NCBI GenBank assembly: GCA_949788275.1
Contig: OX460916.1
Coordinates: 1,984,001-2,048,000, forward strand
DNA: 64,000 nucleotides
DNA from: Weeksellaceae bacterium
GTDB lineage: Bacteria > Bacteroidota > Bacteroidia > Flavobacteriales > Weeksellaceae
Direction of reading: 5' to 3'
The translations under genes and the position numbers were made by a program. Positions 39,054 through 46,922 of this stretch are shown here, one piece after another. Numbering within the stretch: the stretch's first letter is position 1; the number at the start of each line of letters is the position of its first letter. Under the pieces are notes generated by a model. It saw only the letters and a list, made by a program, of their open reading frames with translations, made no database searches and was not told the origin of the DNA.

Positions 39054-39953
39054 TTAAGCGATCTTTTTTTCGTTAAAAATCAGGTGTTTTTCTGCGTTCC
39101 ATTTCTCCATCGGTGTTATCCTACCAAGTAATCCATGTAATCTTTCATTGTTATAGAAAATGACATACTCTTTCAGAATTTGTTGTATTTGCTCAAAAGT
39201 AGTGTATTCCAATCGATCGAATACGTCCTTTTTTAAAATTCCATGATAAGCTTCTATATGCGCATTTTCTTCTGGTGTCGCCACATGTGTAAACTCTTGT
39301 TCTACACCAATCAGACTTAGATAATCACGAACATCATGGGCTATAAACTGACTTCCATTATCGCTTCTAATAATTACATTTTCAGGGTAGTTATAGTGTT
39401 CAAACAGTTCTGAAAGAAAATTGATGACATGATTTTTCTTGATCTTATAAGCCAATATATCTTTCAGTATTCTTCGGGTATGAACATCAATAATAGATAA
39501 AAGATAAGCGTTTTCATCTCTTGATGGTACCCATACGTATTTGATATCCATTTCTATACACTGAAATGGTCTATTCGTTAAAACTTTTCTATACTTAACG
39601 AACTTTCTACCAGTACCACTTCTTTTTATGCGATCATCAAGCTTTAATAACCCAGCCTGTTTCATGATTCGATAAACTTTTTTATGATTTATTTGATACC
39701 CTTTTCTTACCAAATAGCTCGTCATCAGACGATAGCCACAATCTATGAAAGGATGATTTAATATGGCCTTGATGCTTTTTATAACTTCTGATTCATTGAC
39801 ATTCCCTAAACGACTATGCTTGGTGTTAATGGATGGTTTTAAGCCTTTTTTACCACCACTTACTTTTCGATAATAGCTACTTTCGGCTAGGACTACCATC
39901 TGAATTAACCGTAGTTTACTACACTTATAACGTTCGTAAAATTGGTCTACCAA
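39054..39953 (-). CDS. IS3-family transposase OrfB (DDE integrase core)
   Basis: 299 aa. The HTH_21-like region (NHPFIDCGYRLMTSYLVRKG) and the integrase core carry the DDE triad: D in CIEMDIKYVW, D in IRSDNGSQF, E in ENAHIEAYHG. The apparent TTG start at 39953 is only where the open frame begins. In an intact element it would be reached by a -1 frameshift from OrfA, but one A is missing from the A-run at 39957-39961 compared with the expected KKDLVDQ reading. Confidence 0.85.
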   Translation of the reverse strand: MVDQFYERYKCSKLRLIQMVVLAESSYYRKVSGGKKGLKPSINTKHSRLGNVNESEVIKSIKAILNHPFIDCGYRLMTSYLVRKGYQINHKKVYRIMKQAGLLKLDDRIKRSGTGRKFVKYRKVLTNRPFQCIEMDIKYVWVPSRDENAYLLSIIDVHTRRILKDILAYKIKKNHVINFLSELFEHYNYPENVIIRSDNGSQFIAHDVRDYLSLIGVEQEFTHVATPEENAHIEAYHGILKKDVFDRLEYTTFEQIQQILKEYVIFYNNERLHGLLGRITPMEKWNAEKHLIFNEKKIA

Positions 39954-42217: not shown

Positions 42218-43504
42218 TTATTTATCAGATACTTCTATACTTTTCACAAATTCACTTTCAAAAAAGCTTTTATCCTGCTGATCTCCAAACCTATTAATTG
42301 GAGTAATTTCTAACACCCCTTGTAATCTGAAGTTTCTAATTTCACCAAGACGAAGTAGACAATTTGTATTAATTCTTAAATTATTATAAATATCTAAAGT
42401 TTGTTCTTGATTTAAGGCTTGTACAAAAGTTTTAAATTCAGCTAATGATGAATAAATTCCTCCATCTACTTCAACTTTATTTACTCTTATTATTCGTTTG
42501 GTAATATTGTTATTTCTGTCTTTGTATTTAATCAAATAATATTCGTTTGGTATAAAATCATAAAATGATACTCTATCTTCATCTTTTTGATATTTTACAC
42601 CGAATACATCATTACAGATTTTATAATCTATTTCGATTTTTTGTTTTCTAATTTTATCAGAAAATAATGATTTTACTAATAACTGATGATAGTAATGATA
42701 AAAAACTACTGAATGAGGTTTTAATAGTTCATAACTGATTTTTTCACCTGTACGTTCTCCCTCGTTATTTTTTAAATGAATAAATTCTTTTAATGTTATT
42801 TGAACAATTTTTTTTGATTTGATCAATTCAGGCAATAATTTAATTTTCTTATTTAATTCTTCATGGTTTTTTATAAGAGCCAATACTTTATAAGGTAAAA
42901 ATTCTTCAGAGAAAGTTTTAGCTGTACTATTATACCACTTGCATTTAAGTTCAAGATTTATATCACCTGTATCTTCACAAATTCTTTTTTTTTCATCAGA
43001 GAACTTATAACCAATAATATTCATTGTTGGTGGTAAAAACTCTAAATGAGCACTTGTCGTAAATTTAGCATTATCTAAATCATTCGTTTCTTTGATCGCT
43101 CTTTTTTTTAGTTCTAAATCAACTGATTTTAAAATAACTAATTTGTTATAATAGTTGTTGTAAAATTCACTTTCAAATTTATCTAAATCAATATTGTTTA
43201 TTTCAATAGAAGTTAATATATCTTCATATAATTTGTCTTCACTTGATTTGACATTAACATAATTTAATGCATTAGAATTAAAATTTTTACGATCAAATTT
43301 ACCTGCTTTTGAGTTATAGTAAATTGTATGTACTATACTTCCTAAATTTACACTTGAAATAGAAGAGTGAAATTTTTCTTTTTTAACTTCATAAACATTT
43401 AAAAATGGTGAAGTGTATTCGTGATTTGCTCCAATTAAAATTGAAGAATCTACAAAATTGTTCGTATTAAATACAACAATATTTCCTTTTTTTATATTAG
43501 TCAT
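42218..43504 (-). CDS. hypothetical 428-aa protein, unknown family
   Basis: No motif recognised. Lysine- and asparagine-rich, no signal peptide or membrane segment; mixed alpha/beta with charged regions (IKNHEELNKKIKLLPELIKS). Very AT-rich like the neighbouring reverse transcriptase gene, from which it diverges across a 417-bp interval containing a predicted structured RNA. It could belong to the same defence locus, but nothing in the sequence proves it. Confidence 0.65.
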   Translation of the reverse strand: MTNIKKGNIVVFNTNNFVDSSILIGANHEYTSPFLNVYEVKKEKFHSSISSVNLGSIVHTIYYNSKAGKFDRKNFNSNALNYVNVKSSEDKLYEDILTSIEINNIDLDKFESEFYNNYYNKLVILKSVDLELKKRAIKETNDLDNAKFTTSAHLEFLPPTMNIIGYKFSDEKKRICEDTGDINLELKCKWYNSTAKTFSEEFLPYKVLALIKNHEELNKKIKLLPELIKSKKIVQITLKEFIHLKNNEGERTGEKISYELLKPHSVVFYHYYHQLLVKSLFSDKIRKQKIEIDYKICNDVFGVKYQKDEDRVSFYDFIPNEYYLIKYKDRNNNITKRIIRVNKVEVDGGIYSSLAEFKTFVQALNQEQTLDIYNNLRINTNCLLRLGEIRNFRLQGVLEITPINRFGDQQDKSFFESEFVKSIEVSDK

Positions 43505-43620
43505 TATTTTTCTATATCAATTAGTTGTGGTAAATGTAATTAATAAATATCTTTGAAGCGAATCCTTTAGGTAGAGCTCATTAACATTTAGTGGAATATG
43601 AATCAATTTTGATTTACTTT

Positions 43621-43780
43621 ATAGCAGTTAGGTTATAAAGGAAACATTAGTCCATGTTCTCGAATTAACCAAACTTATTAATTTAATAAGTTCGGTAATT
43701 CTCAAGGTAAGTAATATAACAGCTATAACCGTTGTTTCAGGGTTAGAAATCAGATTTAGGATTTCCACCGATAAAGTGAG
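43621..43780 (+). ncRNA. candidate structured RNA upstream of the reverse transcriptase
   Basis: GGTTATA (43631-43637) can pair with TATAACC (43724-43730). This encloses a long hairpin (43662-43681 with 43683-43701, one bulge and one mismatch) and a small ACAT/ATGT hairpin. A further GAAATC/GATTTC hairpin lies at about 43747-43766. Non-coding RNAs upstream of the gene are known for some defence reverse transcriptases (DRT2, DRT9). Folding was judged by eye; transcription is not shown. The rest of the 43505-43921 gap has no other feature. Confidence 0.45.
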
Positions 43781-43921
43781 TAATTCAGTCATTCTCTTGA
43801 AAGTTTGTTTATTATTTATAAATATAATCGCATCATCAATGACTCAGTAATTGGGTGCTATTCCAATGTAGTGTATGTTAATGTAAAAGCGTTATTGCTA
43901 CCTAAGGATTTTTTTATAACT

Positions 43922-45571
43922 ATGAAAAAAGAATTACCAGATTGGTTTAAAATAAAAGGTTACACACATTTATCTCCGACTATTCAGCTTTCGAATAGTG
44001 AACGTATTATTCGTCAGATAAAAAATCCAAACTATGTCGCGAGATATGCTTTTTATCCTTTAATTCATAAAATTATCAAAGAGCGTAAATACAAACAAGC
44101 GGATCCAAGTAAACATCTTACAGTAGGAAGACGACATTCTCATCTTTGTATTAAAACTAAAAGTACTTTAAAAACACAAAAAGAACGTCCCTTGCACTAT
44201 GCAAGTCATATGGATTCGTTAGTTTATGGATATTATGCTCAGTTAATTAATGAACGTTATGAAAAAATTTTGAAAAGTCAATCTTCGTTGAATGATGCTG
44301 TATTAGCCTATAGAAAAATAGAAACTTTCGAAGGTTCTGGAGTAGGAAAATCTAATATTCATTTTGCAAAAGAATGTTTTGATGTTATAACCAATTACAA
44401 TAGTACTTGCGAAGAAGTTGGCGTATTAGCATTTGATCTAAAAAGCTTTTTCTCAACCCTAGACCATCAAATTTTAAAAAGAACTTGGGCTAAATTATTA
44501 GGAAAAAATGAATTACCTAAAGATCATTACAATGTATTTAAAGCCTGTACGAAGTTCAATTATGTTTTATTAGATGATTTAAGAATTGGTCAAAAACAGT
44601 TAGGAAGAAGAAATGGATTTAATGAATCTAAGTTAGCCTCAATACGTAAACACAAAGGCTACAAATGTTTTTTTAAAGATAATGAAGAGTTTAGAAATGA
44701 AATTCAACAAGGACATCTAAAAATTTATAATAATCCATTTTATAGAAAAATAGATACAATAGATCAAAGTAAATTTACTACACGCAAAATTAATGTAGGT
44801 ATTCCACAAGGTTTACCCATATCTGCAACTTTAGCAAATCTTTATTTACTTGAATTTGATCAAAAGATTATTGATTTTTTAGCTCAATATAATGGAGTCT
44901 ATCGTCGTTACTCAGATGATTTATTAGTTATTTGTAAACGAAGCGATATGCAACAAATTGAATCCTTTTTTTATGATTTGATTGAAGAATATAAAATTAC
45001 TATCAGTAAAGAAAAAACCGAACGTTTTGTTTTTAAAATGGTTGAATATAATTTTCAAAAACAAACAAGATTAGAATGTTTTAAACTTTCACTTGATAAT
45101 ATTGAGATTAATAGTTGCTTAAATTATCTAGGCTTTGAGTTTAGAGGATACCATACAGGTATTAAATCAACCAACTTGGCTAAATATTATCGTAAAATGA
45201 TTTCATCTGCTAAGAAAAAAGCTAAAAGAGCACATCATTTGCATCAAAAAAATGAGTCAATTAAACACGTTATCTATCTTAATCAATTAAGAAAGATAAC
45301 TACTCTTCCTATACGTTTACAAGCAATAGAAAATATTGAAGAAAAAAATCTACAACGTAAGTATAGTTTATTAAAATACAATAAAACAAAAGGATTTTAT
45401 GAGTATGTTCATTATCCTCCAAATCCTAATAAGATGAAGAATAGATCAAATTACCATTCTTATATTAGGCGCTGTTGTACTGTTTTTGGAACTGATACTT
45501 TTAATCAACAATTAAAAAAGAATAGAGTCATAATGCATAAAGCTGTGTATTATCATTTAAATAAATTTTAG
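43922..45571 (+). CDS. reverse transcriptase of unknown group, probable phage-defence RT
   Basis: 549 aa from ATG 43922; a TTG at 43805 would add 39 residues with no family support. RT motifs: VLAFDLKSFFSTLDH (motif A, catalytic Asp), VGIPQGLPISATLANLYL (B), RRYSDDLLVI (C, Y330-S-D-D), then SKEKTERF and NYLGFEFRG (D/E). The upstream block RPLHYASHMDSLVYGYYA is typical of chromosomal unknown-group RTs. No maturase, HNH or retron VTG motif, so not a group II intron or a typical retron RT. A C-terminal helical extension of about 140 residues follows. Very AT-rich. It precedes a companion gene at 45641. Exact UG/DRT class not assignable here. Confidence 0.85.
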   Translation: MKKELPDWFKIKGYTHLSPTIQLSNSERIIRQIKNPNYVARYAFYPLIHKIIKERKYKQADPSKHLTVGRRHSHLCIKTKSTLKTQKERPLHYASHMDSLVYGYYAQLINERYEKILKSQSSLNDAVLAYRKIETFEGSGVGKSNIHFAKECFDVITNYNSTCEEVGVLAFDLKSFFSTLDHQILKRTWAKLLGKNELPKDHYNVFKACTKFNYVLLDDLRIGQKQLGRRNGFNESKLASIRKHKGYKCFFKDNEEFRNEIQQGHLKIYNNPFYRKIDTIDQSKFTTRKINVGIPQGLPISATLANLYLLEFDQKIIDFLAQYNGVYRRYSDDLLVICKRSDMQQIESFFYDLIEEYKITISKEKTERFVFKMVEYNFQKQTRLECFKLSLDNIEINSCLNYLGFEFRGYHTGIKSTNLAKYYRKMISSAKKKAKRAHHLHQKNESIKHVIYLNQLRKITTLPIRLQAIENIEEKNLQRKYSLLKYNKTKGFYEYVHYPPNPNKMKNRSNYHSYIRRCCTVFGTDTFNQQLKKNRVIMHKAVYYHLNKF

Positions 45572-45640
45572 CTTATGACTTATTGTCATGAAATCTAAGA
45601 TGGTCTATTGATTGATTTACAATTCGTAAATATATCTAAT

Positions 45641-46321
45641 ATGAAAAAAATTCGAATTCATGATCTAGTTGATTTTAACAAAAAGTCTGAACGATCAAAG
45701 ATTACACAGGTTAATAATTTCAAAAAAGAAATTCCAAAGGTTGAAAAAGATAAAAAAGATTCTGGAGGAGATTATTGGATCAGCTGTAATTCAGCTTTAA
45801 TTAAGTATTTTAAAACTGAAGATGTAAAAGTATTAAATCATAAAATTGATCATTTAAAATCAATGATTGATAATACACCTTTAAAGCAGACTAAAGATCG
45901 CTTTAATTTTAATATTGATAGAATCAATGATTTCATTCCATTTAATATTAAAGAAATAAAACCTTCAGAAGAAATAAAAATTCTAAAAAAGGAAGAAAAA
46001 TATCCAAAACTAAAAATCAATGATTTAACAATAGAAATTAAACCTGATATAATTTTTAGTTTTAATGTTGATGAAATTGGAAGTGTATGGTTTATTACTA
46101 AAAAAGGAGGATTTAAAAGTAATGAATTAGCAATGTTTTGCGATATTAATTTTAGATATTTAACTAAAGTATATTCGGAAAAATATAATATTAACACTGA
46201 CTTTGTGACTATTATAGATGTGTTTAACACTAGCTATATGACATATAGTCAAATAAAAGATGGCGAAATCATATCTCCATTAATTAATACAATTGAAGAG
46301 TTTAAAAAACTATTACGTTAA
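45641..46321 (+). CDS. hypothetical protein downstream of the RT
   Basis: 226 aa from ATG 45641 (MKKIRIHDLVDFNKKSERSK); a TTG at 45608 adds 11 residues without support. Contains SGGDYWISCNSALIKYFK and a beta-rich second half with IGSVWFITKKGGFKSNELAM. Similar unknown proteins occur in mobile regions of Bacteroidota as far as I recall, but no activity can be named. It lies 69 bp after the RT on the same strand, so it is probably co-expressed. Confidence 0.65.
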   Translation: MKKIRIHDLVDFNKKSERSKITQVNNFKKEIPKVEKDKKDSGGDYWISCNSALIKYFKTEDVKVLNHKIDHLKSMIDNTPLKQTKDRFNFNIDRINDFIPFNIKEIKPSEEIKILKKEEKYPKLKINDLTIEIKPDIIFSFNVDEIGSVWFITKKGGFKSNELAMFCDINFRYLTKVYSEKYNINTDFVTIIDVFNTSYMTYSQIKDGEIISPLINTIEEFKKLLR

Positions 46322-46472
46322 AAAAGTGTTGGATTATTCCAATGCTTTTTTAATACACAACTTAAAATTTATTGAAAATTATATAAGTTTTTACCACCAT
46401 TTTTTATTTTTATATCTATATATATTCCTATCTGGTATTTCATATTCTTTAGTTTTGTTGGCTTCCCATAAA

Positions 46473-46724
46473 ATGTTGGCTTCCCATAAAATTGTACAGA
46501 ATTATATTCGGTTAGTAAACGGTTTAGGTTTATATATAAAAGAATCTGGAATTAAGAATGCTTTTATCATTGAAAAGCTTGAAATGAACCGTATAACCTA
46601 CTATAGAAAACTTAAAGGCTTAAAGTTTACACCTTATGAAATTCTTGAAATATTAAGGGTTATTGATGAAAATAGGAAAAGCGTAACAGAAAATTATTAT
46701 ATAAAAAATCGCTTGAAAGACTGA
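46473..46724 (+). CDS. small helix-turn-helix-like protein
   Basis: 83 aa beginning MLASHKIVQNYIRLVNGLGL. The pattern GIKNAFIIEKLEMNRITYYR followed by KLKGLKFTPYEILEILRVI resembles Cro-type HTH proteins that regulate defence or mobile genes. The open frame continues upstream to 46293, but those residues are hydrophobic filler; the ATG at 46473 was chosen. This start lies in an exact 18-bp tandem duplication (46455-46490 region), so two LASHK copies appear. Confidence 0.6.
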   Translation: MLASHKIVQNYIRLVNGLGLYIKESGIKNAFIIEKLEMNRITYYRKLKGLKFTPYEILEILRVIDENRKSVTENYYIKNRLKD

Positions 46725-46848: not shown

Positions 46849-46922
46849 TGGTCCCACCTGGGCTCGAACCAGGGACCACCTGATTATGAGTCAGGTGCTC
46901 TAACCAGCTGAGCTATAGGACC
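46849..46922 (-). tRNA. tRNA-Met (CAT anticodon)
   Basis: 74-nt cloverleaf on the minus strand: acceptor GGTCCTA pairs with TGGGACC, D-arm AGCTCAGCTGGTTAGAGC, anticodon stem CCTGA/TCAGG with loop CTCATAA (anticodon CAT), T-arm CCTGGTTCGAGCCCAGG, discriminator A. The CCA end is not encoded. Elongator Met is most likely; a lysidine-modified tRNA-Ile2 also has CAT and cannot be excluded. Confidence 0.93.

What the first reader, a model, noticed from the sequence alone, without database searches (positions are those of the whole stretch)
43505..46724. Reverse transcriptase locus with an upstream structured RNA and an uncharacterised companion gene
The RT has intact catalytic motifs (VLAFDLKSFFSTLDH, YSDD) but no group II maturase or retron hallmark, and it lies in a defence-rich island. 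The 417 bp before it are non-coding and can form a long hairpin (43662-43701) closed by GGTTATA/TATAACC, plus further stems. DRT2 and DRT9 defence RTs use an ncRNA template placed upstream of the RT gene. Here a 226-aa protein of unknown family and a small HTH protein follow on the same strand. The combination does not match any system I can name with confidence, so it is the best candidate for an undescribed RT-based antiphage system.
Basis: partly seen in the sequence, partly recalled or inferred. Interest (0 to 1): 0.72.

Follow-up and report, generated by a model that had tools for sequence, protein, structure and literature searches.

The report
Divergent DRT2 system with hidden gene

Summary
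The RT is real and intact, but the system is not unknown: by sequence and predicted fold it is a divergent DRT2. The upstream region is a structured ncRNA with covarying long-range helices. In 39 analysed loci (window included) its variable middle is flanked by a short direct repeat that differs between lineages, not the canonical ACA. Taking that stretch as the cDNA repeat, 32 of 39 units are divisible by 3, and all 32 carry a stop-free hydrophobic frame on the cDNA strand: a predicted neo gene. 14 of 14 held-out loci passed. The window's unit is 43647-43823 (177 nt, 59 codons), although its own flanking repeat is no better than background. Six loci instead predict a finite, junction-spanning Neo. 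The 226-aa gene is not a conserved partner. The conserved partner is the WYL/YodC-type gene on the other side (42218-43504): 49 of 49 loci of this branch, 0 of 20 of a sister group. A published preprint (PMC11100668) called Neo annotation 'more challenging' in divergent DRT2 clades. Nothing was tested experimentally.

The parts
42218..43504 (-). Divergently transcribed conserved partner gene (PADLOC RTasWYL-YodC)
   Evidence: PADLOC PDLC03787 E 3.9e-79; 8 of 8 aligned homologues hit the same model; a homologue lies 290-470 nt upstream of the RT start in 49 of 49 loci of this branch, 0 of 20 in group C
43548..43555 (+). Putative ncRNA promoter -7 element TATCTTTG (Bacteroidota consensus TAnnTTTG, recalled)
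   Evidence: coordinates; similar elements aligned at this place in homologues; function inferred
43560..43574 (+). 5' arm of terminal helix P1
   Evidence: duplex with 43898-43910; own arms pair at mean -20.6 kcal/mol versus -9.5 for swapped loci, 12 representatives; coordinates
43593..43598 (+). 5' arm of long-range helix P2 (GGAATA)
   Evidence: pairs with 43859-43864; 152 of 156 cells paired over 26 loci versus at most 73 when slid; 13 distinct arm pairs 74 of 78, 0 of 5000 shuffles
43616..43641 (+). Conserved hairpin H2 (ACTTTATA...GGTTATAAAGG)
   Evidence: seen in the alignment with changed stem sequence; pair counts not made
43647..43823 (+). Predicted reverse-transcription template / cDNA repeat unit, 177 nt
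   Evidence: boundaries by alignment to relatives (coordinates); length divisible by 3; cDNA-strand frame open (shuffle P 0.0085)
43647..43822 (-). Predicted neo frame on the cDNA strand (59 codons per repeat, continues across the repeat junction; in-frame ATG at 43792-43790)
   Evidence: GRAVY 0.47; each of the 32 open units is above its shuffled mean
43648..43649 (+). 5' copy of the putative jump repeat (TA only in the window; TTTA, ATTG, GTTTAT etc. in relatives)
   Evidence: in the window 2 nt, about background
43825..43826 (+). 3' copy of the putative jump repeat
43859..43864 (+). 3' arm of P2 (TATTCC), inside the conserved 3' scaffold that begins about 43824
43898..43910 (+). 3' arm of P1, followed by a U-rich run just before the RT start codon (terminator-like)
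   Evidence: termination is inferred
43922..45571 (+). Reverse transcriptase, DRT2-like, 549 aa
45641..46321 (+).
   Evidence: 3 of 22 related genomes only; no family hits

Best explanation
A divergent, two-protein DRT2-like defence system. Inferred working: the ncRNA (about 43557-43916) folds with its ends paired and is bound by the RT. On phage infection the RT copies the 177-nt template (43647-43823), jumps from its 5' end back to its 3' end at a short direct repeat, and so makes head-to-tail cDNA repeats. Once double-stranded, the cDNA strand is transcribed and read as a stop-free hydrophobic polypeptide (Neo, 59 aa per repeat), which arrests growth. The neighbouring WYL/YodC-type protein is a conserved second component, most likely a regulator or sensor (weakest step). 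Shown here by sequence: RT family and fold; conserved covarying ncRNA; open, length-constrained, hydrophobic cDNA-strand frames in the clade; promoter-like elements on that strand in about half of the units; strict co-occurrence of the partner gene. Inferred by analogy with K. pneumoniae DRT2: priming, jumping, second-strand synthesis, phage trigger, toxicity.
For: RT: PADLOC Drt2 E 5e-127, PDB DRT2, Foldseek 9c0i E 2e-28. ncRNA. Neo: 18 of 25 loci of the first set and 14 of 14 held-out loci (L039; L099-L108 and L113-L115) have unit length divisible by 3 and an open cDNA-strand frame. Sum of log10(P/3) over the 14 is -27, treating loci as independent, which they are not. An open frame on the ncRNA strand exists in only 11 of 32. 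Neo-frame GRAVY 0.81 versus 0.12 shuffled, 32 of 32 above, all with Met. Exact TAnnTTTG on the cDNA strand in 15 of 30 units versus 3.5 expected, 0 of 300 shuffles, 4 on the other strand. Full TTG-N18-21-TAnnTTTG in 6 of 31 versus 0.28, at most 2 in 300 shuffles, none on the other strand. Partner gene 49 of 49 versus 0 of 20. Boundary repeats 4.47 nt in register versus 1.99 displaced, but the boundaries had been chosen for having a repeat, so this is not an independent test.
Against: The window's own flanking repeat is only 2 nt, no better than background (1.96 at displaced registers), and its cDNA strand has the -7-like element but no full promoter. 7 of 39 units are not divisible by 3 (L010-L015, L028). 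For L006, L007 and the window the automatic motif finder gave 212, 281 and 178; I moved these anchors by one base onto the aligned repeat (213, 282, 177). Synonymous/non-synonymous counts do not single out the neo frame. A first boundary guess (TTAC) failed, as did a looser promoter scan (25 of 26 versus 22.2 expected). Of three canonical DRT2 controls, the plain ACA-to-ACA rule recovered neo in one (L080); in L079 and L081 frames are open only with other end points chosen by hand.
Confidence: 0.82

Rival explanations
1. The RT makes repetitive cDNA whose DNA itself is the effector (as described for DRT9 or DRT10); open frames are a by-product of composition.
For: Related class 2 DRTs work through DNA products (PMC12632851, passages seen); codon substitution counts do not prove coding.
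Against: Lengths divisible by 3 in 14 of 14 held-out units, hydrophobicity and cDNA-strand promoter elements have no obvious reason to exist in a DNA effector.
Confidence: 0.08
2. An ordinary small antisense gene (hydrophobic toxin-like peptide) is encoded on the minus strand of the intergenic region and needs no template jumping.
For: Frames are open on the chromosome too and contain ATG.
Against: An ordinary gene would end in a stop and would not need a unit length divisible by 3 between conserved RNA boundaries. The frame stays open across the artificial junction in 32 of 39 units. In L010-L015 the longest ORF needs the junction.
Confidence: 0.05
3. The DRT2-like module in relatives works as described but this particular copy is decayed or uses a different jump site.
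For: Flanking repeat only 2 nt and no full cDNA-strand promoter in the window.
Against: RT intact, ncRNA helices P1 and P2 paired, template frame open (P 0.0085), partner gene intact.
Confidence: 0.12
4. One reading: RT plus the 226-aa protein form an undescribed system.
For: Same strand, about 70 bp behind the RT; a diverged copy lies next to one other RT (G040).
Against: 3 of 22 genomes; not on the same strand in the other adjacent case; unlinked in G041.
Confidence: 0.03

Closest known systems
DRT2 (UG2) of Klebsiella pneumoniae (PMC12039810, PMC11100668)
   Same: RT family and fold; ncRNA directly upstream; central variable template with conserved flanks; predicted stop-free cDNA-strand ORF with length divisible by 3; hydrophobic repeat unit
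   Different: RT more than 100 residues longer (549 versus 425) and below NCBIfam's Drt2 cut-off; no ACA/ACA pair but a lineage-specific direct repeat; ncRNA ends paired with each other and about 355 nt long (inferred ends); templates 102-282 nt in this clade; Bacteroidota-type promoter elements; a conserved second protein; a subclade with a finite ORF
DRT9 (PMC12483538, search listing with start of abstract only)
   Same: RT plus ncRNA defence system; DRT9 chains are among the next structural hits after DRT2
   Different: makes homopolymer DNA; far weaker similarity
DRT10 (UG17) (PMC12632851, passages)
   Same: class 2 RT making tandem-repeat cDNA from an ncRNA; RT_UG17 is the best non-Drt2 PADLOC hit (E 1.4e-20)
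   Different: protein-primed tandem-repeat cDNA, no neo gene described in the passages seen; much weaker hit

Membership tests
DRT2 | RT of the UG2/Drt2 family | tested here: met
   PADLOC PDLC03757 E 5e-127; phmmer to 9c0i E 1e-42; Foldseek best hit 9c0i, TM-score by target 0.74
DRT2 | NCBIfam NF041746 equivalog cut-off (390 bits) | tested here: not met
   321 bits; hence called DRT2-like, not an equivalog-level Drt2
DRT2 | structured ncRNA directly upstream of the RT | tested here: met
DRT2 | ACA-1/ACA-2 flanking the template | tested here: not met
   flanks are TTTA, GTTTAT, ATTG, TTATCA etc. in relatives and only TA in the window
DRT2 | repeat unit divisible by 3 with a stop-free frame on the cDNA strand | tested here: met
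   window 177 nt, open; 32 of 39 units in the clade
DRT2 | promoter reconstituted across the repeat junction | tested here: inconclusive
   full promoter-like element in 6 of 31 units, split by the junction only in L006 and L007; absent in the window
DRT2 | no additional protein-coding gene (as stated in PMC11100668) | tested here: not met
   WYL/YodC-type gene in 49 of 49 loci of this branch
DRT2 | phage-triggered concatemeric cDNA and Neo toxicity | not testable with these tools
   needs infection experiments
Retron | RT in a retron clade; msr/msd ncRNA | tested here: not met
   retron models score far below Drt2; no Rfam retron match at gathering threshold
Group II intron | maturase-type RT with intron RNA | tested here: not met
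   TIGR04416 67.6 bits versus cut-off 300; no Rfam intron match at gathering threshold

The most novel reading that the evidence does not exclude
A branch of DRT2-like systems in Bacteroidota is a two-protein (RT plus WYL/YodC-type partner) neo-making machine. Its jump signal is written by a lineage-specific direct repeat rather than ACA, its neo template is a swappable effector cassette, and in one subclade the jump shifts the reading frame so that a finite, self-terminating Neo protein is made whose gene overlaps itself across the junction instead of being never-ending.
Probability: 0.5. Interest if true: 0.78.

Novelty: new variant of a known kind. Interest (0 to 1): 0.66.

Why it matters
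One DRT2 preprint states that Neo annotation was 'more challenging' in divergent DRT2 clades and raised the possibility of alternative mechanisms (PMC11100668, passage); the other DRT2 paper analysed the 42 orthologues closest to K. pneumoniae (PMC12039810). This work gives template boundaries and predicted Neo frames for such a clade, so the question becomes directly testable. It also predicts a new protein component, a rule for the jump signal, and a finite-Neo subclade that might not need ribosome rescue. I saw no paper describing these in searches, which cover only open-licence PubMed Central papers; figures and supplements of the two DRT2 papers, where other clades are shown, were not available to me.

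Tried and rejected
First template guess (TTAC...TTAC): rejected; most pairs tried were not divisible by 3, and only L020, L021 (plus strand) and L025 (another pair) gave an open frame. Second guess (short direct repeat at the edges of the variable region) worked and was then tested on new loci. For L006, L007 and the window the anchor was moved by one base.

Junction promoter with one mismatch allowed: 25 of 26 units versus 22.2 expected, uninformative. The exact-match tests were run later on more units, so they are a second look at the same question.

Codon substitution ratios: no frame stands out. For L010-L015, frame comparison favours the frame switch in the first 96 nt of the cDNA unit (L010/L013: 43 versus 21 and 17; same direction for L010/L014 and L012/L015), but in the rest of the unit it is mixed (L010/L013 38 versus 37; L012/L015 41 versus 41).

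Group B (L040, L049-L057): first anchors gave lengths 1 mod 3 in 10 of 10. A GTA/GTT repeat chosen afterwards gave 7 of 8 divisible by 3 and open; the eighth, L054, had been mistyped by one base and passes when corrected (171 nt), so 8 of 8 tried; L040 and L049 are unresolved. This is post hoc and not counted in the 39.

Rows left out of the 39: L029 (cut by contig end), L036, L038, L045-L048, L066, L109-L111 (distant or partial), group C (20 loci, examined only for the partner gene, and only in the roughly 1.5 kb held upstream), group B, and re-fetched copies L098, L112, L116. L115 has the same template length and Neo frame as L008. For some searches nine and eight near-duplicate units were dropped by hand (30 and 31 left).

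The partner-gene profile was built from eight clade A members including the window, so its hits in those loci are by construction; the L105-L108, L039 and B groups were not in it.

AlphaFold model of the WYL/YodC partner: pLDDT 51.5, not used. Viral contigs gave only distant RTs.
Full report
WHAT IS THERE. The RT ORF at 43922-45571 is intact. It is a Drt2-family enzyme: PADLOC PDLC03757 E 5e-127, phmmer to the solved DRT2 9c0i E 1e-42, and its AlphaFold model (pLDDT 75.8) has 9c0i as best PDB match (E 2e-28, TM-score by target 0.74). It scores 321 bits against NCBIfam's Drt2 model, below the 390-bit cut-off. In a midpoint-rooted tree the window falls in a clade with the other clade A loci and L105-L108 (support 0.966; 0.759 with the L039 group), apart from a group (support 0.978) that holds the K. 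pneumoniae fragment and three plasmid Drt2 proteins (L079-L081).

NCRNA. The 25 loci first analysed (L004-L028, with L009 = window) have an alignable RNA between the RT and the upstream gene. Two long-range helices are supported by sequence change. P2 (window 43593-43598 with 43859-43864) is paired in 152 of 156 cells over 26 loci, against at most 73 when slid by 1-3 columns; 13 distinct arm pairs give 74 of 78 paired and 0 of 5000 re-dealings reach that (mean 61.2). P1, which joins the two ends, averages -20.6 kcal/mol within loci and -9.5 between loci for 12 representatives. For 9 of the 12 no other 3' end pairs as well; for L013 and L022 one does, for L028 four do. The 3' arm of P1 is followed by a U-rich run just before the RT start codon, which looks like a terminator (inference). 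The window RNA folds better than 100 of 100 shuffles (z -4.07).

THE HIDDEN GENE. In K. pneumoniae DRT2 the RT makes tandem cDNA repeats of a 120-nt template and the opposite strand encodes Neo, a stop-free ORF. All 42 close orthologues studied there have lengths divisible by three (PMC12039810, parts 1-3 of the text and passages read). A sister preprint says Neo annotation was more challenging in divergent DRT2 clades (PMC11100668, parts 1-4 and passages read). Here the variable middle of the ncRNA is flanked by a short direct repeat that differs between lineages. A first boundary guess did not fit. With the direct repeat as boundary, 18 of 25 loci had lengths divisible by 3 (102 to 282 nt) and an open cDNA-strand frame; for L006, L007 and the window the anchor was moved by one base between to sit on the aligned repeat. 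I then fetched new loci from other families and chose the boundary repeats by eye from the nucleotide sequence before translating. L039 and all 13 further loci passed (L113 after correcting a one-base typing error). So 14 of 14 held-out and 32 of 39 in all have a length divisible by 3, and each of these 32 is open on the cDNA strand, against 11 of 32 on the other strand. Some held-out loci are close relatives of each other and L115 repeats L008, so the product of probabilities (log10 -27) overstates independence.

SUPPORT THAT IT IS CODING AND EXPRESSED. The open frames are hydrophobic (GRAVY 0.81 versus 0.12 shuffled; 32 of 32 above; all have Met), as reported for Neo. The Bacteroidota -7 element TAnnTTTG (consensus recalled) occurs exactly on the cDNA strand in 15 of 30 units left after dropping near-duplicates, against 3.5 expected and 4 on the ncRNA strand. 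The full TTG-N18-21-TAnnTTTG occurs in 6 of 31, against 0.28 expected and none on the ncRNA strand; in L006 and L007 the repeat junction lies inside it, in the other four it is internal. The distance from the -7 element to the next in-frame ATG varies from 8 to 157 nt. Boundary repeats average 4.47 nt in register against 1.99 displaced, but boundaries were chosen for having a repeat. Against: synonymous/non-synonymous counts do not pick out the neo frame; a looser promoter scan was uninformative; the window's own boundary repeat is only 2 nt, and it lacks a full promoter; the plain ACA rule recovered neo in only one of three canonical controls.

FINITE NEO. In L010-L012 (190 nt) and L013-L015 (196 nt) the unit is 1 mod 3, and every frame has at least two stops when lengths divisible by 3 within 4 nt are tried. 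Joined at the repeat, an ATG ORF of 68-73 aa crosses the junction, changes frame and ends in the next unit, overlapping its own start. Both subgroups keep this layout, and the switched frame is the most similar one between L010 and L013 in the first 96 nt (43 versus 21 and 17); the rest of the unit does not discriminate well. L028 (185 nt) may be similar but is a single locus.

CASSETTE SWAPS. L024 and L025 share 92.9% of RT residues but have dissimilar templates (117 versus 141 nt, 62.9% aligned identity), while L025's template is 80% identical to that of L020, whose RT is only 68.4% identical. L016 and L017 have RTs 95.5% identical and templates 62.4%. The template therefore appears to be exchanged independently of the RT.

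PARTNERS. The gene at 42218-43504 (PADLOC RTasWYL-YodC) has a homologue 290-470 nt upstream of the RT start in 28 of 28 clade A loci, 4 of 4 of L105-L108, 7 of 7 of the L039 group and 10 of 10 of group B (on the RT's own strand in L049, L054 and L057, divergent in the other 46), and in 0 of 20 of group C, for which about 1.5 kb upstream was held. The profile was built from eight clade A members. PADLOC already lists the family as RT-associated; no Pfam domain was found in the window's copy and its model is unusable, so its role is inference from the name. The 226-aa gene is in 3 of 22 genomes, once unlinked and once convergent with a stop inside.

WHERE THIS LEAVES THE FINDING. It is best called a divergent DRT2-like system: it fails the NCBIfam cut-off, the ACA motif and the single-gene criterion, and meets the RT, ncRNA and open-frame criteria. 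All function is inferred.

Noticed in passing
G000:C1:1430601-1430630 (L002 1501-1530) against window 43694-43723: A spacer in the genome's own CRISPR array (cas9-, cas1- and cas2-like ORFs beside 55 repeats) matches the DRT2-like template at 29 of 30 bases; it is the only one of the array's 53 spacers of 30-31 nt that hits the 64-kb window with up to 3 mismatches. It could be self-targeting, taken from a mobile element carrying this locus, or, boldly, taken from the system's own cDNA. Two other spacers also match the chromosome exactly (314229-314259, and four tandem tRNA-His genes near 705813), so self hits are not unique to it. The PAM could not be derived. The gene names are by eye, not by a family search.
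   Followed up: partly
window 46849-46922: A tRNA gene (Rfam, minus strand) lies just beyond the locus, a usual place for integrating islands.
   Followed up: no
window 20841, 53885, 2117, 31196, 48491: Five matches to the Flavo-1 RNA family in 64 kb.
   Followed up: no
window 39054-39953: Integrase-core (transposase-like) gene beside the locus.
   Followed up: no
L030-L035, L037, L041-L044, L058-L065, L067 (group C): A sister group of Drt2-like RTs without the WYL/YodC partner in the stretch held; several also show ncRNA ends that can pair with each other just before the RT start (seen by eye). Their templates were not analysed.
   Followed up: no
L040, L049-L057 (group B): With a GTA/GTT boundary repeat chosen after the fact, 8 of 8 units tried are divisible by 3 and open; L040 and L049 unresolved.
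   Followed up: partly
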